Positions 40,701 to 50,854 of a stretch of DNA of 64,000 nucleotides are shown here, in pieces. The notes beneath the pieces were generated by a model. It did not search any database, was not told the DNA's origin, and worked only from the letters and a program-made list of their open reading frames with translations. Made by a program: the position numbers and the translations under genes. How positions within the stretch are numbered: position 1 is the first letter of the stretch; the number at the start of each line of letters is the position of its first letter. Source of the stretch: Microbacterium sp. nov. GSS16 (GTDB lineage: Bacteria > Actinomycetota > Actinomycetes > Actinomycetales > Microbacteriaceae); the NCBI RefSeq assembly GCF_028198145.1, contig NZ_CP116338.1:1054001-1118000 (forward strand). The letters run 5' to 3'.

Positions 40701-40943
40701 CCCGGCGCGACCTGTCGATGGGGTGCCGCACCCTGTCATCTGCCGGGCGCTGCGGCGCACCTCCTGCCCGAGATCTCAGACCGTTCAGTCGACTGACGGG
40801 GTGTCGTCATGCGACGCGCCGCCGCCGCGGCGTTCGGCCTGAGAATTCCCGCGCGCGGATTGCCGGTTTGACACAACAGGATCGTTGTCGACCTGTCAGC
40901 AAGTCGTGTGCGCGTCGGTCGTGCGCTTTGGCAGACTGGTCGC

Positions 40944-41396
40944 ATGGTGACCCTGCTGCTGGATCAGACGCGACTTGAGATCGTTCTCTCGCCGATCGAG
41001 CGGGCATCGACCTTCCACCGTGAGAACGTGCGGGTAGAGCGTGAGCACATCACCAAGGTGCAGCTGACGCAGGATGCCTGGACGTGGCTGCGCGGAGTGC
41101 CGGGGCCCGGCACGCACATCCCCGGCGTCCTCGCCGCCGGGACGTGGAAGGCTGCCGAGACCACGGACTTCGTGCTCATCCGGCGGCGCAAGCCCAGCGT
41201 GGTGATCGACCTCGACGGGGACCCCCAGTTCCAGCGACTCATCCTCACCACTCGGCACGGACTCGCTCTGACACAGGCGCTGCGCCTCGAGGTCAGCGAT
41301 CAGCCTGAAGACGTCGCCGACATCGCGACCGGCGCGGTGCCGGTGCAGAAGCCGCGCCAGCGGCGGGTGATCCGGCCGCGGCCGCGGACGGTCTGA
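40944..41396 (+). CDS. Conserved hypothetical protein, PH-like beta domain suspected
   Basis: 150 residues from ATG 40944 (GTG 40947 is possible). The sequence is a run of short beta strands: LEIVLSPIERASTFHRENVRVEREHITKVQL-type, then GTHIPGVLAAGTW, TTDFVLIRRRKPSVVIDL and FQRLILTTRHGLALTQAL, ending in a very basic tail (RQRRVIRPRPRTV). No signal peptide or membrane span. The strand spacing looks like a bacterial PH-like domain, but this is inference only. The 243-base gap upstream holds a TTGACA at 40868-40873 and no gene that I can support. Confidence 0.6.
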   Translation: MVTLLLDQTRLEIVLSPIERASTFHRENVRVEREHITKVQLTQDAWTWLRGVPGPGTHIPGVLAAGTWKAAETTDFVLIRRRKPSVVIDLDGDPQFQRLILTTRHGLALTQALRLEVSDQPEDVADIATGAVPVQKPRQRRVIRPRPRTV

Positions 41397-41518
41397 CGTC
41401 GCGCCAGGATGAGCTGGTGGCCGACGGTGCCGCCGCCCGGCTCGGCCGGCGCTTGGCCGGGTGTGGCGCGCGGGCTCGTGGCCGGCTCGATCGGTGCCTG
41501 GTGGACTCGAGCCGAGTC

Positions 41519-43852
41519 TCAGTGCTGCTGCTGGCCCTGGTCTCCGTCGTGGCGGGCATCGTGGCCCGAGGTGCCGTCGGGGCGTTCGGATGCCTCGTCG
41601 GCATCCGCGTCGGCCGACTCCTCGCGCCGCTGAGCGCGTGAGCTGTAGGGGTAATCCGGAGCAGGACCGTCGAAGAAGCGGCTGGCCGCTGCCGAGAGCG
41701 AGGTGCGCATCGCGGCGAGTCGCGGGTCGTCATCTCCGTCGTCGACGGAGTCATCGTCGTCGTCGCCCGACAGGGTGGGCGTCACGATCGAGATGGCCTC
41801 GGTCGCCGGGGCCGGGTTGTCGGATCCGTCGGTGGTGACGGAGGCGGGAAGGCCCGTGATCAGCTCGGTGAACGTCGGTTCGACCGCCGCAGACGGCAGA
41901 GTGACCGCATCGGTCGCGAGGGGCAGGAGCAGCGGTCGCGTCTCGTCCGACGATTCGTCGGCGCGGTGCTCGTCGTCGTCGTGCTCGTCGTCGTGTTCCG
42001 GCTGCGCATCCGACGCCCGCTGGGCGTCGGCCTCGGGGCGGGCGTCCGGCTCAGCGTGGGCGTCCGGCTCACGCGTCTCGCCGACAGTGGCACCGTCGAT
42101 CACGTCGTCGATCAGGTCATCATCGCTCTGCTCGGCTGCGCGAGCCTCGTCCGATGACGGAGAGTCCATTTCCACGTCGGAGATGTCCGAGTTCGCGGCG
42201 TCGAGGTCGGCGCCGGCATCGGTGTCCGTGCCCTCGCTCGTCTCGTCTCCTGGCGCGTTCTCGGGTCCGCCATCGACGGTCTTTGCGCCCTCGCTCGTCT
42301 CGTTCGCGGGCGCGGGCTCCGAATCGCCATCGACGGCCTGCCCGCCGTCCTCTGGTGCATCGGACGCCGACGGCGCGTCCGCCTCGGCATCCGCGGCCGT
42401 CTCGACGCCGGCGATCTGCGCACCCGCCGCGGGGTCGTCCAGGGTCGTCGCGTTCGCGTCGCCGTCACTTTCCGTGGCGGCGCCTTCCGTTCCGGCGCTG
42501 TCCGTCGCGTTTCCGTCCGTCGCGTCGCTGTCACTTTCCGTCGCGTCGATGTCCGATGCGTCGCCGTCCGTCGCGCCTTCGTCGGTCGGCGCGCTGTCCG
42601 ACGCGCCTTCAGCCGTCGCGTCGCTGTCCGTATCATCACTGTCCGGCGCGTGCTCGTCCACGGCGATCGTGTCGGTGGGTGCGGCCCCGTATCCGGTGCC
42701 GGCTGCAGCCACCGCGCCTCCGTCGGCGACGACCGCAGCCGCGCCCGAAAGGGGCACACCTCCGGCGACCAGGGCCGCGTCGGCAGCACCGGCCTCAGCG
42801 TCGTCGACGACGCGGTCCACGTCGTCGCGGGCGTCGACATCCGAAGCATCCGTAGCATCCGTCCTCGCCGCGTCGGCGCTGGCGACGCCTGCCCCGCTCA
42901 TCGGGTCGGACGCGTGCGCGACCCGATTCGCCGACGTGTCGAGGCGCGGGCTGTCGGCACGGCGCCCGTAGACGAGGTCGAGGAAGACCTCCTCGAGGCT
43001 GGGCCCGCGCTGCTGCAGCATGGTCAGGGCGACGCCGGCCTGGGCGGCGACGGCGCCGACCGCAGCCGAATCGGAGTCGCGCACGGTGACGCCCGAGCGC
43101 AGCACGTCGAAGTCGAGCTTCGCGGCCGAGAGCGCGGTGATCAGGGGTGCGCGGTTCTCGGCATCCACCACGACGGCACCGCCGGAGGCATCCGCGAGTT
43201 CGGAGATGGGGCCGGCGTGCACCGCACGGCCTTTCGACAGCACCACGACGTCGTCGGCCACCTGCTCGATCTCGCTCAGCACGTGAGACGAGACGAGCAC
43301 CGTGCGTCCTTCGTCGGCGAGGCGACGCATCAGCAGACGCATCCAGCGGATGCCCTCGGGGTCGAGACCGTTGGCCGGCTCGTCGAGCACGAGAACGCCG
43401 GGGTCGCCGAGCAGCGCCGACGCGACGGCCAGACGCTGCCGCATTCCCAGTGAGTAGCTGCCCAGGCGGGTGTCGCCGTCGTCCTGCAGGCCGACCAGGT
43501 GCAGCACCTCATCGACACGAGCGGACGGAATGCCGTTGGCCTTCGCGGCGAGCATCAGCTGACGACTTGCCGTGCGGCGCGGGCGGTACGCCGACTCCTC
43601 CAGCACGGCACCGATCGTGCGCAGCGGGTGACGCAGCTCGGAGTAGTTCGCTCCGCCGATGGTCGCGGAGCCCGAGGTGGGGCGGATCTGCCCGAGCAGG
43701 ATGCGCAGTGACGTGGTCTTGCCTGCGCCGTTCGGGCCGAGGAATCCGGTGACGGCGCCGGGCTCGACGCGGACGGAGAGGTCGGAAACGGCGGTCAGCG
43801 CGCCGAAGCGCTTTGTGACCTGGGTGAACTCGAGCACCTGTCCTTCGGGCAT
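41519..43852 (-). CDS. ABC transporter ATPase with a ~475-residue acidic low-complexity C-terminal tail
   Basis: 777 residues from ATG 43852, with a GGAGAGG ribosome site. Residues 1-300 are a complete ABC-2-type ATPase: Walker A LGPNGAGKTT (about 39-46), signature YSLGMRQRL, Walker B VLVLDEPANGLD and the H-loop VSSHVL, then the usual accessory C-terminal subdomain. The remaining part (about 300-777, genomic 41519-42955) is dominated by Asp, Ala, Ser, Thr, Glu and Gly with few hydrophobics, looks disordered and is made of loose repeats of the ATESDSDATDGNATDS kind. Near the end is a more ordered stretch (RLAAMRTSLSAAASRFFDGP). No permease gene is adjacent. The frame has no stop and codon use stays GC-rich, so the tail is real. 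Confidence 0.85.
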   Translation of the reverse strand: MPEGQVLEFTQVTKRFGALTAVSDLSVRVEPGAVTGFLGPNGAGKTTSLRILLGQIRPTSGSATIGGANYSELRHPLRTIGAVLEESAYRPRRTASRQLMLAAKANGIPSARVDEVLHLVGLQDDGDTRLGSYSLGMRQRLAVASALLGDPGVLVLDEPANGLDPEGIRWMRLLMRRLADEGRTVLVSSHVLSEIEQVADDVVVLSKGRAVHAGPISELADASGGAVVVDAENRAPLITALSAAKLDFDVLRSGVTVRDSDSAAVGAVAAQAGVALTMLQQRGPSLEEVFLDLVYGRRADSPRLDTSANRVAHASDPMSGAGVASADAARTDATDASDVDARDDVDRVVDDAEAGAADAALVAGGVPLSGAAAVVADGGAVAAAGTGYGAAPTDTIAVDEHAPDSDDTDSDATAEGASDSAPTDEGATDGDASDIDATESDSDATDGNATDSAGTEGAATESDGDANATTLDDPAAGAQIAGVETAADAEADAPSASDAPEDGGQAVDGDSEPAPANETSEGAKTVDGGPENAPGDETSEGTDTDAGADLDAANSDISDVEMDSPSSDEARAAEQSDDDLIDDVIDGATVGETREPDAHAEPDARPEADAQRASDAQPEHDDEHDDDEHRADESSDETRPLLLPLATDAVTLPSAAVEPTFTELITGLPASVTTDGSDNPAPATEAISIVTPTLSGDDDDDSVDDGDDDPRLAAMRTSLSAAASRFFDGPAPDYPYSSRAQRREESADADADEASERPDGTSGHDARHDGDQGQQQH

Positions 43853-43985: not shown

Positions 43986-45044
43986 GTGACCGACACCGAA
44001 GCCGCCACCGTCATCGCCCGCACCGACAGCTCGCTCGGACGCGTCACGCTGAACCGTCCGCGGGCGATCAACGCCCTGGATCTCGGCATGATCGAGCAGA
44101 TCACCGCAGCCCTCACGGCATGGGTCGACGACACCGACGTGCAGACCGTGCTGATCGACGGCGCCGGCGAGCGGGGTCTGTGCGCCGGCGGTGACGTGCG
44201 CGCGCTCTACGACTCGATCACGAGCGGTCAGCCCGACCACATCGCCGACTTCTTCCGCGCCGAGTACGCGATGAACGCGCTCATCGCCGAGTATCCCAAG
44301 CCCGTCGTCGTGTTCGCCGACGGGATCACGATGGGCGGTGGCATCGGCCTCGCCGGTCACGCCGCCGTGCGCATCGTGACCGAGCGCTCGCGCCTCGCGA
44401 TGCCCGAGACGCGCATCGGCTTCACACCCGACGTCGGGGGCACCTGGCTGCTCGGCCGCGCGCCGGGCCGGCTGGGGGAGTACTTCGGTCTCACGGGCCA
44501 GAGCATGAGCGCGGCGGACGCCCTGTACCTCGGCTTCGCTGATCACTTCGTGCCGTCTGAGAACCTGGACGGGCTGCGCGATGCTCTCGCCACCCGTGCC
44601 GACCCCGGCACGCCGAACGAGCTGACCCTGCTGTTCGACGAGACGCCGGAGCCGTCGCAGCTGCCGGCCGCTCGGGCGTGGATCGACGAGACCTTCTCCG
44701 GCGACACCGTGGGAGAGATCATGCAGCGGCTGCGGGAATCGGATGCCCCGGATGCAGCGACTGCCCTCGCGACGCTCGAGGAGCTCTCGCCCACCGCCCT
44801 CACCGTCACCCTCGACGCCGTGCGCGAGGCACGCGCGATGAGCGGTGTGCGCGAAGCGCTGGAGGGGGAGTACCGCCGGGTCATGTGGTTCGGGCACAAT
44901 CATCCCGATCTGGTCGAGGGCATCCGGGCTCAGCTGGTCGACAAGGACCGCGACCCGAAGTGGCAGCCTGCGACCGTCGCCGACCTGCCCGCGGATGCCG
45001 GTGCGCCGGCGCGCGCGTACGTGCCCGAGCCGCCGCTCTTCTGA
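43986..45044 (+). CDS. 3-hydroxyisobutyryl-CoA hydrolase-like protein (enoyl-CoA hydratase/isomerase family)
   Basis: 352 residues from GTG 43986, 7 bases after a TAGCCT box at 43973-43978 (leaderless); the frame is open far upstream but without support. The crotonase oxyanion-hole segments are GLCAGGDVRALYDS and FADGITMGGGIGLAGHA, and the ETRIGFTPDVGGTWLLGR motif with the Glu/Asp pair and the C-terminal extension (about 100 residues beyond a 250-residue hydratase) fit the HIBYL-CoA hydrolase group of valine breakdown. A plain enoyl-CoA hydratase is less likely on length. Confidence 0.87.
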   Translation: MTDTEAATVIARTDSSLGRVTLNRPRAINALDLGMIEQITAALTAWVDDTDVQTVLIDGAGERGLCAGGDVRALYDSITSGQPDHIADFFRAEYAMNALIAEYPKPVVVFADGITMGGGIGLAGHAAVRIVTERSRLAMPETRIGFTPDVGGTWLLGRAPGRLGEYFGLTGQSMSAADALYLGFADHFVPSENLDGLRDALATRADPGTPNELTLLFDETPEPSQLPAARAWIDETFSGDTVGEIMQRLRESDAPDAATALATLEELSPTALTVTLDAVREARAMSGVREALEGEYRRVMWFGHNHPDLVEGIRAQLVDKDRDPKWQPATVADLPADAGAPARAYVPEPPLF

Positions 45045-46739: not shown

Positions 46740-46880
46740 CACCTCACCGGGGTGGGTGCGCGCGCCCTTTCCGCTGGGAGCGAAGGTCATCCCTGAGAGG
46801 GATACGAATGTCGGCGGTTCGTGGCACTCTGTGTGGTGGCCGCGTTTCGGCCCTCCGAAATCTCACAAGGAAGTCCGCCT

Positions 46881-48608
46881 GTGCTCGGAAAACTCCTCAC
46901 CCGCTATCTGGCCAGATACTGGCCGCTGCTCATCACGATCGTCGTGCTGCAGTTCGCCAGCGTCATGGCATCCCTCAACCTGCCCGAGATCAACGCCGAC
47001 ATCGTCAACAACGGCGTCGCGAAGGCCGACATCGGCTACATCTGGAACCGCGGCGGCTTCATGCTGCTCGTGTCGCTGGGGCAGATCCTCGCCTCGATCC
47101 TCGCCACCTTCTTCGCCGCGCGCATGGCGATGAGCGCCGGCCGCGACATCCGCGCCGACGTCTTCGCCCGGGTGAGCGGATTCTCCGAGCGTGAGGTGTC
47201 ACAATTCGGCGCCGGCTCGCTGATCACCCGCAACACGAACGACGTGCAGCAGGTGCAGATGCTCGCGATGATGGGCGCGACGATGTTCGTCACCGCTCCG
47301 CTGCTCGCGATCGGGGGCATCATCAAGGCCATCCAGACCGACGTCGGCCTCAGCTGGCTGATCGCCGTGTCGGTGCCGCTGCTGCTGGTCATCGCCGTCG
47401 TGATCATCGGCCGGATGGTGCCGCTGTTCCGGCGCAATCAGGCCAAGCTCGACGACGTCAACCGCATCATGCGCGAGCAGCTGACCGGTGTGCGCGTCGT
47501 GCGCGCCTTCGTGCGCGAGCGCATCGAAGAGCGTCGGTTCCGCACCGTCAACACCGACCTCATGGTGCTCGGACGCAACATCGGCTCGCTGTTCGTGCTG
47601 ATGTTCCCGCTCTTCATGCTCGTGCTCAACGTCACCATCGTCGCGGTGGTGTGGTTCGGCGGCGTGGAGATCAATGCCGGCAACGCCGAAATCGGCACGA
47701 TCTTCGCGTTCATGCAGTACATCGGCCAGATCATGATGGGCGTCATCATGTCGAGCTTCATGGCGATGATGATCCCGCGCGCCGCCGTCTCGGCCGAGCG
47801 CGTCACCGAGGTGCTCGACGCCGAATCGTCGATGACCCGCCCCGAGAACGGCGTCACCGACTTCCCCGAGCCGGGCGCGGTGGCTTTCCGGAACGTCGAG
47901 TTCACGTATCCGGGTGCGGAGGTGCCGGTTCTCTCCGACATCACCTTCGACGCCCGGCCGGGCGAGACGGTGGCGATCATCGGATCCACCGGATCGGGTA
48001 AGACGACTCTGGTCTCGCTGATCCCGCGCCTCTTCGACGCGACGGGCGGCGCGGTGCACGTGGGCGGCGTCGACGTGCGTGAGGCCGATCTCGACACGCT
48101 CTGGCAGGGCATCGGGCTCGTGCCGCAGCGCCCCTTCCTGTTCTCCGGCACGGTCGCATCCAACCTCCGCTACGGGCGGAAGGATGCCACCGACGACGAG
48201 CTGTGGGCGGCGCTCGAGATCGCCCAGGGGCGCGACTTCGTCGAGGCGATGCCGGACGGACTCGACTCGCGCATCGCCCAGGGCGGCACGAACGTCTCCG
48301 GCGGCCAGCGGCAGCGTCTGGCGATCGCCCGGGCGATCGTGCACCGGCCGCGCATCCTCGTGTTCGACGACTCGTTCTCGGCCCTCGATCTGACGACGGA
48401 TGCCCGATTGCGCCAGGCCCTGTGGCGAGAGCTGCCCGACGTCACCAAGATCGTCGTCGCGCAGCGCGTCTCGACGATCACCGACGCCGACCGCATCGTC
48501 GTCCTCGACGACGGCGCCGTGGTGGGCGTGGGCACGCACGACGAGCTGCTCGTCACCAGCCCGACCTACCGCGAGATCGTCGAGTCGCAGCTGGGGGTGG
48601 ACGCATGA
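46881..48608 (+). CDS. ABC exporter half-transporter, degenerate-site subunit
   Basis: 575 residues from GTG 46881 with an AAGGAAG ribosome site. Six membrane spans occupy residues about 15-300, and the nucleotide-binding domain carries Walker A GSTGSGKTTL, the canonical signature NVSGGQRQRL, but Walker B ILVFDDSFSALD (Asp in place of the catalytic Glu) and AQRVST in place of AHRLST (the switch His is Gln). These are the marks of the subunit that forms the degenerate site in heterodimeric exporters. The ATGA overlap at 48605-48608 couples it to its partner. Confidence 0.9.
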   Translation: MLGKLLTRYLARYWPLLITIVVLQFASVMASLNLPEINADIVNNGVAKADIGYIWNRGGFMLLVSLGQILASILATFFAARMAMSAGRDIRADVFARVSGFSEREVSQFGAGSLITRNTNDVQQVQMLAMMGATMFVTAPLLAIGGIIKAIQTDVGLSWLIAVSVPLLLVIAVVIIGRMVPLFRRNQAKLDDVNRIMREQLTGVRVVRAFVRERIEERRFRTVNTDLMVLGRNIGSLFVLMFPLFMLVLNVTIVAVVWFGGVEINAGNAEIGTIFAFMQYIGQIMMGVIMSSFMAMMIPRAAVSAERVTEVLDAESSMTRPENGVTDFPEPGAVAFRNVEFTYPGAEVPVLSDITFDARPGETVAIIGSTGSGKTTLVSLIPRLFDATGGAVHVGGVDVREADLDTLWQGIGLVPQRPFLFSGTVASNLRYGRKDATDDELWAALEIAQGRDFVEAMPDGLDSRIAQGGTNVSGGQRQRLAIARAIVHRPRILVFDDSFSALDLTTDARLRQALWRELPDVTKIVVAQRVSTITDADRIVVLDDGAVVGVGTHDELLVTSPTYREIVESQLGVDA

Positions 48609-50854
48609 GCGAGCAGGAGCAGAACAAGATGTCACGCCGCGAACGCGCACTCGCCGCACGGGCATCCGCCACCGCTGTCGCAGAGCCGGAGCTGACCGCC
48701 GCCGAGAAGGAGGAGGCTGAGCTCGCCGAGAAGGCTCGCCTCGAAGGCGGCGGCATGTTCGACGGCCCCGCGCCGGGCAAGGCCGACAACTTCGGGCCCA
48801 GCTTCAAGAGGATGATCGGGCTGCTCAAGCCCTCTGCCTGGTGGTTCGCGCTGGTGTCGTTCTTCGGCGCCGTCGGTGTCGTGCTCGCCGTCGCTGCGCC
48901 GAAGGTGCTCGGCGAGGCGACCAACGTCGTCTACGAGGGATTCATCTCGAGCGTGCTCGGCCAGGGCTTCGGCGGAGCACCGGGGTTCCCGCAGGGCACC
49001 AGCCGCGACCAGGTCGTCGAGGCGCTGCGCGGCGCGGGGCAGGACGAGTTCGCCAACATGATCTCGGCCATGGACGACTTCGCGGTCGGCGACGGCGTCG
49101 ACTTCGAGCGCCTGCGCTGGATCATCGTCGCGGTGCTGGCCATCTACGTCGTCTCCGCGATCCTCAGCTGGCTGCAGGGGTACGTGATCAACGTGATCAT
49201 GGTGCGCACCATGTGGCGCCTGCGTGAAGACGTCGAGGCGAAGATCAACCGTCTGCCGCTGTCGTACTTCGACAAGGTGCAGCGCGGCGAGCTGATCTCG
49301 CGCGTCACGAACGACATCGACAACATCACCCAAACCATGCAGCAGTCGCTCTCGGGTGCGCTCACCAGCGTGCTCACGGTGGTCGGCGTGCTGGTCATGA
49401 TGTTCTCGATCTCGTGGCAGCTCGCCCTGGTCGCGCTCATCTCCCTGCCCCTTATGGGCGTGATCTTCGGCATCATCGGACCGCGCTCGCAGAAGGCCTT
49501 CGGCACGCAGTGGCGCAAGGTGGGCCGTCTGAACGCCCGCGTCGAGGAGGCCTTCTCCGGTCACGCGCTGGTGAAGGTGTTCGGCCGTGAGAAGGACGCC
49601 CTCGAGAGCTTCCAGGTCGAGAACGAGGAGCTGTTCCAGGCGGCGTTCAAGGCGCAGTTCCTCTCGGGCATCATCATGCCCGCGATGATGTTCGTCGGAA
49701 ACCTGCAGTACGTCGGCATCGCGGTGCTCGGCGGTCTGCTCGTCGCAGGCGGCAACCTGCGACTCGGCGACGTGCAGGCGTTCATCCAGTACTCCCAGCA
49801 GTTCAGCCAGCCGCTCAGCGAGCTGGGCGGCATGGCCGCCGTCGTGCAGTCGGGCACCGCCTCGGCCGAGCGGGTCTTCGACCTGCTCGACGCGGAGGAG
49901 CAGGATCCGGATGCCGATGACCCGCCCTCCGCGCCGGAGGGCAAGGGTGTCATCGAGTTCGAGCACGTCGCCTTCTCGTACAGCGAGGATCGCCCGCTGA
50001 TCACCGACCTCTCGTTCCGGGTGGAGCCCGGGCAGACCGTCGCGATCGTGGGGCCGACCGGTGCCGGCAAGACGACGCTCGTGAACCTCATCATGCGGTT
50101 CTACGAGCTCGACTCGGGTCGCATCCTGCTCGACGGGCAGGACATCTCCGAGATGCGCCGCGACGACCTGCGTGCGCGCACCGGCATGGTGCTGCAGGAT
50201 CCGTGGCTGTTCGCCGGCAGCATCCGCGAGAACATCCGCTACGGCAACGACGTGGCCACAGACGAGCAGATCATCGCCGCGGCCGAGGCGACGTACGTCG
50301 ACCGCTTCGTGCACTCCCTGCCCGAGGGCTACGAGACTGTGCTCGACGAGGACGCCTCGAACGTCTCGGCCGGAGAGCGCCAGCTGATCACGATCGCCCG
50401 GGCATTCGTGTCACGACCGTCGATCCTCATCCTCGATGAGGCGACGAGCGCCGTCGACACCCGCACCGAGCTGCTGCTGCAGCAGGCCATGGCAGCACTT
50501 CGCGAGGGGCGCACGTCGTTCGTGATCGCCCACCGCCTGTCGACGATCCGCGACGCCGACCTCATCCTCGTGATGGAGCACGGCGACATCGTCGAGCAGG
50601 GTGACCATGACGAGCTGATCGCTCGGCAGGGCGCGTACTGGCGGCTCTACCAGTCGCAGTTCGAGCAGGCCGCAACCGATCTCGACGCCGAGGAGGCCCT
50701 CACCGGATCGGTGCCGGTGATCGTCACCGGAGAGGCCGTGGACGAGCGCGAGGCGGTCGCCGAGCAGAAGGTCGTCGCCGCCCCCGACGCTCACCAGCTC
50801 GGCGAAGCGGTCAAAGAGGCCGAGACCACGGCATCCGACCCGAAGCGCGACTGA
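48605..50854 (+). CDS. ABC exporter half-transporter, partner subunit with canonical Walker B
   Basis: 749 residues. A long charged N-terminal extension (about 75 residues, SRRERALAARASATAVAEPE) precedes six spans; an extra ~60-residue loop (QGFGGAPGFPQGTSRDQ...) sits after the first span. The ATPase domain has Walker A GPTGAGKTTL, Walker B ILILDEATSAVD and the switch AHRLST, but its signature is NVSAGERQL rather than LSGGQ. Together with the preceding subunit it gives one working and one degenerate ATP site. A ~65-residue acidic tail ends the protein. Exports lipids, peptides or drugs; substrate unknown. Confidence 0.9.
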   Translation: MSEQEQNKMSRRERALAARASATAVAEPELTAAEKEEAELAEKARLEGGGMFDGPAPGKADNFGPSFKRMIGLLKPSAWWFALVSFFGAVGVVLAVAAPKVLGEATNVVYEGFISSVLGQGFGGAPGFPQGTSRDQVVEALRGAGQDEFANMISAMDDFAVGDGVDFERLRWIIVAVLAIYVVSAILSWLQGYVINVIMVRTMWRLREDVEAKINRLPLSYFDKVQRGELISRVTNDIDNITQTMQQSLSGALTSVLTVVGVLVMMFSISWQLALVALISLPLMGVIFGIIGPRSQKAFGTQWRKVGRLNARVEEAFSGHALVKVFGREKDALESFQVENEELFQAAFKAQFLSGIIMPAMMFVGNLQYVGIAVLGGLLVAGGNLRLGDVQAFIQYSQQFSQPLSELGGMAAVVQSGTASAERVFDLLDAEEQDPDADDPPSAPEGKGVIEFEHVAFSYSEDRPLITDLSFRVEPGQTVAIVGPTGAGKTTLVNLIMRFYELDSGRILLDGQDISEMRRDDLRARTGMVLQDPWLFAGSIRENIRYGNDVATDEQIIAAAEATYVDRFVHSLPEGYETVLDEDASNVSAGERQLITIARAFVSRPSILILDEATSAVDTRTELLLQQAMAALREGRTSFVIAHRLSTIRDADLILVMEHGDIVEQGDHDELIARQGAYWRLYQSQFEQAATDLDAEEALTGSVPVIVTGEAVDEREAVAEQKVVAAPDAHQLGEAVKEAETTASDPKRD

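What the first reader, a model, noticed from the sequence alone, without database searches (positions are those of the whole stretch)
41519..43852. ABC ATPase carrying a ~475-residue acidic, disordered tail and lacking a permease neighbour
The N-terminal 300 residues are an intact ABC-2-type ATPase, but the protein continues for about 475 residues of Asp/Ala/Ser/Thr/Glu-rich loosely repetitive sequence. Normal ABC-2 ATPases are about 300 residues long and are followed by a permease gene; here the gene on either side is unrelated. A more ordered patch near the end (RLAAMRTSLSAAASRFFDGP) could be a functional module. This is the least ordinary protein in the window.
Basis: partly seen in the sequence, partly recalled or inferred. 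Interest (0 to 1): 0.7.

Follow-up and report, generated by a model that had tools for sequence, protein, structure and literature searches.

The report
Exporter ATPase that outlived its permease
A bacterial protein whose relatives power an export pump has lost the pump's membrane channel across a whole branch of Microbacterium, yet has kept its ATP-burning machinery, rewritten the surface that should touch the channel and kept a long acidic floppy tail, which suggests that it has taken on a new job.

Summary
On the minus strand, 43852..41519 encodes 777 aa: an intact ABC-2-type ATPase (1-300) plus a 477-residue acidic tail without a permease domain. It is no frameshift: 52 homologues match the tail. 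In other genera of the family the orthologue is 298-334 aa and overlaps a following permease-like gene in 17 of 17 parsed loci. In 32 of 52 Microbacterium loci the ATPase is still followed by that permease. In one clade of 20 the permease gene is gone, and 15 of those genomes searched hold no orthologue elsewhere. There the catalytic motifs stay intact, but the near-invariant Q-loop/groove motif (LEASSFHPGR..HL), where permeases dock, is rewritten to an Arg-rich one (LEE..YRPRR..RQL). An overlapping sample of 80 named loci shows the same link. Most likely this is a former exporter ATPase working without its original permease on a new partner reached through groove and tail; partner and function are unproven. 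A permease acting in trans (e.g. YhgE/Pip type) remains possible. Tail Thr-x-x-[IVL]-x-[IVL] motifs hint at kinase/FHA signalling.

The parts
42953..43852 (-). ABC-2-type ATPase domain (residues 1-300); Walker A 38-47, signature SLGM 134-137, Walker B/D-loop 154-167, H-loop His190
   Evidence: catalytic motifs kept in 20 of 20 permease-less rows
43556..43603 (-). Rewritten Q-loop/coupling-groove segment, residues 84-99 (LEESAYRPRRTASRQL; LEASSFHPGR..HL in permease-bearing relatives)
42677..42775 (-). Proximal tail module, residues 360-392 (holds GVPLSGAAAVVADGGAVAAAG)
   Evidence: mean pairwise identity 0.70 among 21 sequences
41936..42676 (-). Hypervariable acidic spacer, residues 393-639
   Evidence: mean pairwise identity 0.29 over 400-636; predicted disordered
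41777..41935 (-). Distal tail motifs, residues 640-692 (LPLATDAVTLP, FTELITGLPAS, ATEAISIVTP)
41639..41761 (-). Asp run plus predicted helix and YPY motif, residues 698-738 (DDDDSVDDGDDDPRLAAMRTSLSAAASRFFDGPAPDYPYSS)
   Evidence: mean pairwise identity 0.85; helix 710-728, block pLDDT 77-79
41519..41638 (-). Variable C-terminal end (739-777) and stop codon
   Evidence: mean pairwise identity 0.28
41397..41518 (.). Gap where permease-bearing relatives have a ~272-codon permease gene that overlaps the ATPase stop codon
40908..41396 (+). Convergent downstream gene, 162 aa, no Pfam or NCBIfam match; synteny marker
43986..45044 (+). Divergent upstream enoyl-CoA hydratase/isomerase-like gene; synteny marker (start codon approximate)

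Best explanation
The gene descends from the ATPase of a two-gene ABC-2-type exporter (ATPase + permease, overlapping stop and start codons). In the Microbacterium lineage the ATPase gained an acidic, motif-bearing disordered tail. At the base of the clade that holds this window the permease gene was lost. The ATPase kept its catalytic motifs, its groove changed from the permease-docking motif to an Arg-rich surface, and the tail was kept, generally long. SHOWN: synteny and orthology, a single loss on the tree, no orthologous permease in 15 genomes searched, catalytic motifs intact, groove motif different, tails also in permease-bearing relatives. INFERRED: the protein works as an ATP-driven dimer without a membrane part; its Arg-rich groove now engages something other than the old coupling helix, either a new partner or the protein's own Asp-rich distal tail; and the tail's Thr-x-x-[IVL]-x-[IVL] motifs are kinase sites read by FHA-domain proteins, so that ATP state and phosphorylation together control an assembly. 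In kind this resembles SufC (a membrane-free single-NBD ABC ATPase acting on soluble partners; recalled) more than a pump.
For: Synteny: 53 of 59 genus genomes searched give the locus; the enoyl-CoA hydratase-like gene is found in 52 of 53 and the 162-aa gene in 51 of 53. Ancestral state: 17 of 17 parsed loci from other genera (19 fetched, 2 not parsed) have a 298-334-aa ATPase with a 265-280-aa frame at the ATGA overlap. Tree of 69 rows: 20 permease-less rows form one clade, SH-aLRT 100, one change. Loss: in 15 permease-less genomes no hit to a permease query is better than 4.2e-14; 3 permease-bearing controls give 6e-104 or better. Catalysis kept: Walker A, SLGM, DEP and His190 in 20 of 20 and the corresponding motifs in 61 of 61 named loci. 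Groove: A86, H90, G92 occur in 49, 48, 48 of 49 permease-bearing or outgroup rows but in 0 of 20 permease-less rows; the ancestral residue is lost at 7 of 14 conserved sites in 77-99 against 16 of 122 elsewhere (Fisher p 0.0025); a control clade of 11 permease-bearing rows lost 1 of 129. Named sample, partly overlapping: none of 61 decidable loci without HPG has a permease hit, all 12 decidable HPG loci have one in the locus; groove Arg/Lys count 4 in 58 of 58 versus 1 in 11 of 11. Contact region: LptB F90, R91 and L93, in the Q loop after Q85, contact the LptFG coupling helices (PMC5082905, passages). Thr motifs: 33 observed versus shuffle maximum 9 (permease-bearing) and 19 versus 12 (permease-less), Ser not enriched; 14 versus 6 and 61 versus 22 in the named sample.
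Against: The loss is one event, so groove, tail length and permease status cannot be separated statistically from shared ancestry. If the segment is not chosen beforehand, the densest 20-residue stretch of lost sites is matched by 590 of 5000 permutations. The Q-loop Glu85 is itself Ser in 2 of 20, and Arg138 and Gln139 next to the signature vary in 4 and 2 of 20. An Arg-rich groove could equally serve a new permease. The distal helix is no more amphipathic than shuffles (2400 of 5000). The AlphaFold model is poor overall (mean pLDDT 48.4) and shows no docking. The Thr-motif shuffles ignore relatedness, and the motif class also occurs in many unrelated proteins of this genome. No partner was identified. 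The ATPase itself was not found in 3 near-complete genus genomes (G015, G037, G056).
Confidence: 0.5

Rival explanations
1. It is still a pump motor: an orphan ATPase that now energises a different membrane protein encoded elsewhere, as multitask NBDs such as MsmX do for importers. The groove changed to fit the new permease. Natural candidates are the YhgE/Pip proteins, which carry ABC-2-type membrane domains but no ATPase domain.
For: Orphan NBDs that energise several transporters are documented for sugar importers (PMC7658222, passages). The window's genome encodes three YhgE/Pip-type proteins at 319 and 792-798 kb. The new groove motif is itself conserved (R90 17 of 20, R92 18 of 20, R97 17 of 20), as a new interface would be.
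Against: Six other ABC-2-type permease matches in this genome lie beside an ATPase match: near 64, 380, 754, 1051, 2705 and 2728 kb; a further weak match at 653 kb is a sulfate-permease-like protein. Only PF12698, PF12730, PF12679 and PF01061 and one permease sequence were searched, so a diverged permease could be missed. No link between YhgE/Pip proteins and this ATPase was found or tested.
Confidence: 0.3
2. A decaying relic: the exporter is dead and the ATPase persists by inertia.
For: Permease lost; the NBD is less conserved in the permease-less rows than in the permease-bearing rows (mean column entropy 0.70 versus 0.53 over 1-225).
Against: Kept across 20 species with intact catalytic motifs and in 61 of 61 decidable named loci; dN/dS 0.03 for the ATPase against G036 and 0.16 against G033; distal tail module conserved.
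Confidence: 0.08
3. The tail is a mere solubilising or entropic acidic bristle without specific partners, and the ATPase acts on its own.
For: The spacer is hypervariable (identity 0.29) and tail length ranges from 235 to 545 in 19 permease-less rows.
Against: Discrete conserved modules flank the spacer (0.66-0.85 identity); Thr-specific motif excess.
Confidence: 0.1
4. Assembly or frameshift artefact joining an ATPase to an unrelated frame.
For: One relative (G042, L039) shows a short frame, but its sequence holds a run of unknown residues there.
Against: 52 tail homologues, several from contigs of over a million bases.
Confidence: 0.01

Closest known systems
Single-NBD ATPases of ABC-2 exporters (lantibiotic-protection type TIGR03740, DrrA type TIGR01188)
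   Same: ATPase domain and catalytic motifs; best NCBIfam matches 2.7e-56 and 9.2e-53
   Different: Below the curated cut-offs (190.8 of 309.75 and 179.5 of 312.45 bits); 477-residue tail; no permease gene; Q-loop groove unlike that of its permease-bearing orthologues
Orthologous ATPase-permease pair of other Microbacteriaceae and of permease-bearing Microbacterium
   Same: Orthologous ATPase (permease-bearing Microbacterium rows 57-68% identical to the window's domain); same syntenic slot and a tail in the Microbacterium members
   Different: They keep the permease and the LEASSFHPGR..HL groove; the 17 parsed loci of other genera have at most a short extension (298-334 aa)
MsmX/MsmK multitask orphan ATPases
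   Same: ATPase encoded away from any permease gene
   Different: Importer NBDs serving transporters that lack their own ATPase gene (PMC7658222, passages); here the only candidates of that sort found are YhgE/Pip proteins
SufC-like membrane-free ABC ATPase (recalled)
   Same: Single NBD without a membrane partner; proposed mode of action
   Different: Sequence membership and partners not tested; analogy only
Rv1747, FHA/disordered-linker ABC transporter of Mycobacterium tuberculosis
   Same: ABC protein with a disordered cytoplasmic region controlled by kinase phosphorylation and FHA domains (PMC7761784 and PMC9312465, passages)
   Different: Rv1747 carries its own FHA and membrane domains; here there is neither, and phosphorylation is only conjectured

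Membership tests
ABC-2 exporter ATPase | Complete NBD with Walker A, signature, Walker B, H-loop | tested here: met
ABC-2 exporter ATPase | Partner permease encoded beside it or orthologously elsewhere | tested here: not met
ABC-2 exporter ATPase | Curated subfamily cut-off (TIGR03740, TIGR01188) | tested here: not met
ABC-2 exporter ATPase | Groove motif of its own permease-bearing orthologous group | tested here: not met
Multitask orphan NBD (MsmX-like) | Energises permeases encoded elsewhere that lack an ATPase | tested here: inconclusive
   three YhgE/Pip proteins found; no functional test
FHA-regulated ABC protein (Rv1747-like) | FHA domains in the same protein | tested here: not met
FHA-regulated ABC protein (Rv1747-like) | Phosphorylated Thr in the disordered region | not testable with these tools
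   Thr-x-x-[IVL]-x-[IVL] excess is circumstantial
SufC-like membrane-free ABC ATPase | Soluble partner complex | not tested
   analogy, recalled

The most novel reading that the evidence does not exclude
An exporter ATPase that lost its membrane partner and became a soluble ATP-gated signalling scaffold: the old coupling-helix groove, now Arg-rich, is filled by the protein's own Asp-rich distal tail or by a new partner, while phosphorylatable Thr motifs on the tail recruit FHA proteins, so that ATP state and kinase activity jointly control an assembly.
Probability: 0.25. Interest if true: 0.8.

Novelty: new variant of a known kind. Interest (0 to 1): 0.6.

Why it matters
It offers a case in which a transporter motor can be compared across sister species with and without its channel: same gene slot, orthologous ATPase, permease present or absent, contact surface rewritten. 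That would let one test how an ABC ATPase changes trade, and separate permease-contact residues from catalytic ones by natural experiment. The tail adds a bacterial disordered region whose conserved short motifs can be tested one by one.

Tried and rejected
Hidden permease domain in the tail: none. Orthologous permease elsewhere in permease-less genomes: none in 15 searched; of 5 weak hits in 4 of them, 4 lie beside a paralogous ATPase and one in G022 was not looked up. Permease remnant in the permease-less loci: 22 tblastn hits, all from one query (L083) whose frame runs on to 515 aa beyond the permease; the hits I placed (in the window's locus) fall on the 162-aa gene, so I discounted them. 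Amphipathic distal helix: not above shuffles. Structure model: mean pLDDT 48.4, used only for the local helix; no fold search was run on it. TGVID motif as a wider code: 9 matches in 8 of 18 genomes, 7 of them in ATPase genes and 2 elsewhere, with 2 control matches. Anti-phage defence: the PADLOC matches lie in the ATPase domain and look generic. Plasmid carriage: 20 records match, none covers 80% of the protein. Papers: the listings (titles and starts of abstracts) showed none on a tailed Microbacterium ATPase or on this kind of permease loss; weak evidence of absence.

Rows dropped: L084 (contig end) from the tree and later counts; L039 (run of unknown residues) from tail statistics; L106 and L109 not parsed; 11 of 80 loci left out; 3 of 80. 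In one search two loci (L217, L232) were labelled permease-less by my 150-base rule but hold a permease hit at -509 and +861 bases; I count them as permease-bearing. Seven more were undecidable at contig ends (6 without HPG, 1 with). L233 was out of register; one search shows that it has the YRPRR form.

Full report
What is there. The gene lies on the minus strand, 43852 to 41519, 777 codons, with AGGAGAGG five bases before ATG 43852. Residues 1-300 are a complete ABC-2-type ATPase (ABC_tran 1.4e-27; best NCBIfam models the lantibiotic-protection and daunorubicin exporter ATPases, both under their cut-offs). Residues 301-777 are acidic and of low complexity: 125 Asp/Glu, 20 Lys/Arg, 6 aromatics; a charge-hydropathy score calls most 50-residue blocks of it disordered, with exceptions at 351-400 and 651-700.

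The tail is real and modular. A search with the tail alone returned 52 proteins at E<=0.001; where the listing names an organism it is Microbacterium or, for P0002, an unplaced actinomycete. In an alignment of 21 of the 53 sequences then in hand (window included), mean pairwise identity is 0.90 in the ATPase core, 0.70 in a proximal module (360-392), 0.29 in the spacer (400-636), 0.67 in the LPLAT/FTELITG module, 0.66 at ATEAI, 0.85 in the Asp-run/helix/YPY module (698-738) and 0.28 in the last 39 residues. dN/dS against G036 is 0.03, 0.62 and 0.07 for ATPase, spacer and distal module; against the more distant G033 spacer and distal module both give 0.20, with dS saturated in the spacer, so this second pair does not discriminate. 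AlphaFold with 32 sequences gave a poor model, mean pLDDT 48.4, but a helix over 710-728 with block pLDDT 77-79.

The permease was lost. A genus search of 59 genomes and regions fetched around the hits gave 53 loci, the window's included. The enoyl-CoA hydratase-like gene was found in 52 of 53 and the 162-aa gene in 51 of 53. In 32 of 52 loci (L084, a contig end, left out) a membrane protein of mostly ~272 aa follows; in 31 of them its frame starts at the overlap with the ATPase stop, in L088 the start found lies 60 bases on. Of four such proteins scanned, one passes the Pfam ABC2_membrane_2 cut-off, two match it below the cut-off and one matched nothing at E<=0.1. In 20 loci no such gene follows. 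In other genera of the family (36 of 80 genomes with a match at E<=1e-80, own genome included) the orthologue is 298-334 aa and a 265-280-aa frame starts at the same overlap in 17 of 17 parsed loci of 19 fetched; the longest, 334 aa, has a short acidic extension. On a tree of 69 ATPase domains the 20 permease-less rows form one clade (SH-aLRT 100) and one change explains the pattern. A search of 15 permease-less genomes with one permease gave nothing better than 4.2e-14, while 3 permease-bearing controls gave 6e-104 or better. Six of the 59 genomes gave no close ATPase orthologue, three of them near complete (G015, G037, G056), so the gene is not universal in the genus.

The motor was kept and the docking groove rewritten. 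In the 20 permease-less rows Walker A, the SLGM of the signature, the DEP of Walker B and the H-loop His are invariant. The Q-loop segment differs. In 49 permease-bearing or outgroup rows A86, S88, F89, H90, P91, G92 and H98 occur in 49, 49, 48, 48, 49, 48 and 49; in the 20 permease-less rows they occur in 0, 4, 5, 0, 15, 0 and 5, replaced mainly by Glu86, Tyr89, Arg90, Arg92 and Gln98, with Arg97 in 17 and Lys97 in 3. Of 136 sites conserved outside the clade 23 lost the ancestral residue in most of its rows, 7 of 14 in residues 77-99 against 16 of 122 elsewhere (Fisher p 0.0025). A scan for the densest stretch, which does not presuppose the segment, is matched by 590 of 5000 permutations, so the concentration is suggestive and leans on prior knowledge of the groove. 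That knowledge: in LptB, F90, R91 and L93, five, six and eight residues after the Q-loop Gln85, contact the LptFG coupling helices (PMC5082905, passages); the same offsets from Glu85 fall on 90, 91 and 93 here (position 93 is Arg in all rows; the equation of Glu85 with that Gln is my reading of the alignments). A control clade of 11 permease-bearing rows lost 1 of 129 sites.

Named sample. Sixty-one decidable loci lack the HPG motif and none has a permease hit; 10 with HPG have it at the overlap and 2 more elsewhere in the locus; 7 could not be decided. All 61 keep the Walker A, SLGM, DEP, NG[LM]DPEG and SSH motifs. Permease-less records are named, among others, Microbacterium oxydans, M. maritypicum, M. 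paraoxydans, M. hydrocarbonoxydans, M. esteraromaticum, M. azadirachtae and M. barkeri; permease-bearing ones M. aoyamense, M. flavescens, M. luticocti and M. jejuense. The groove Arg/Lys count is 4 in 58 of 58 and 1 in 11 of 11 (69 of 80 loci used). With the groove columns left out the motif still needs one change on the tree (77 of 80 loci plus 19 other rows).

The tail is older than the loss, on the simplest reading. Permease-bearing rows have 21-543 residues after position 300 (median 127.5, n=32; three under 60), permease-less rows 235-545 (median 404, n=19). TG[VI]ID occurs in 22 of 32 and 7 of 19 tails. Motifs of the form Thr-x-x-[IVL]-x-[IVL] exceed shuffled tails (33 versus mean 3.2, maximum 9; 19 versus mean 4.9, maximum 12), while the same form with Ser does not (1 and 4); the named sample agrees (14 versus maximum 6; 61 versus maximum 22; Ser 2 and 3). 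Nine of 19 permease-less rows carry such a motif, against a shuffle maximum of 10, so in that group the excess sits in a subset of species. Thr rather than Ser, with a hydrophobic residue at +3, is what FHA domains could read: they are pThr-specific (PMC3146460, passages) and a pTXXI mode is reported for one (PMC4037201, one passage). The window's genome holds seven FHA matches and, by inspection of frames only, kinase- and phosphatase-like genes near some of them. The shuffles ignore common descent; this is a lead, not a demonstration.

Mechanism and verdict. The best-supported reading is an exporter motor that lost its original channel and now works with something else. Whether that is soluble (0.5) or another membrane protein (0.3) is open. 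An attractive but untested idea is that the Arg-rich groove holds the protein's own Asp-rich distal tail in place of the coupling helix.

Noticed in passing
G000:C1 319806-320297 and 792960-798031 (loci L138-L142): Three YhgE/Pip-type proteins with ABC-2-type membrane domains and no ATPase domain; candidate trans partners.
   Followed up: partly
window 40908-41396 +: A 162-aa gene without Pfam or NCBIfam match is found near this locus in 51 of 53 Microbacterium loci.
   Followed up: partly
G000:C1 498000-528000 (L151, L152; also L133, L134): A cluster with a 1502-aa FHA-bearing protein, further FHA proteins and a kinase-like gene that looks like a type VII secretion locus; two FHA proteins there have linkers with Thr motifs (VQTEAMPV, STRISIPG) like those of the tail. 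Names by inspection only.
   Followed up: partly
L038-L090, C-termini of the tails: Permease-less tails are on average His-richer at the end (mean 6.2 His in the last 40 residues, n=19, range 0-16) than permease-bearing ones (1.1, n=32); the EGGEQR-like end of many of the latter may encode the permease's ribosome-binding site.
   Followed up: no
L065, L076, L079, L088: Four permease-bearing loci have a second ~272-aa membrane protein frame 870-978 bases after the ATPase stop.
   Followed up: no
window 46821-50854 +: Two adjacent ABC exporter-like frames; the first has membrane and ATPase domains by Pfam, the second was only read by eye.
   Followed up: no
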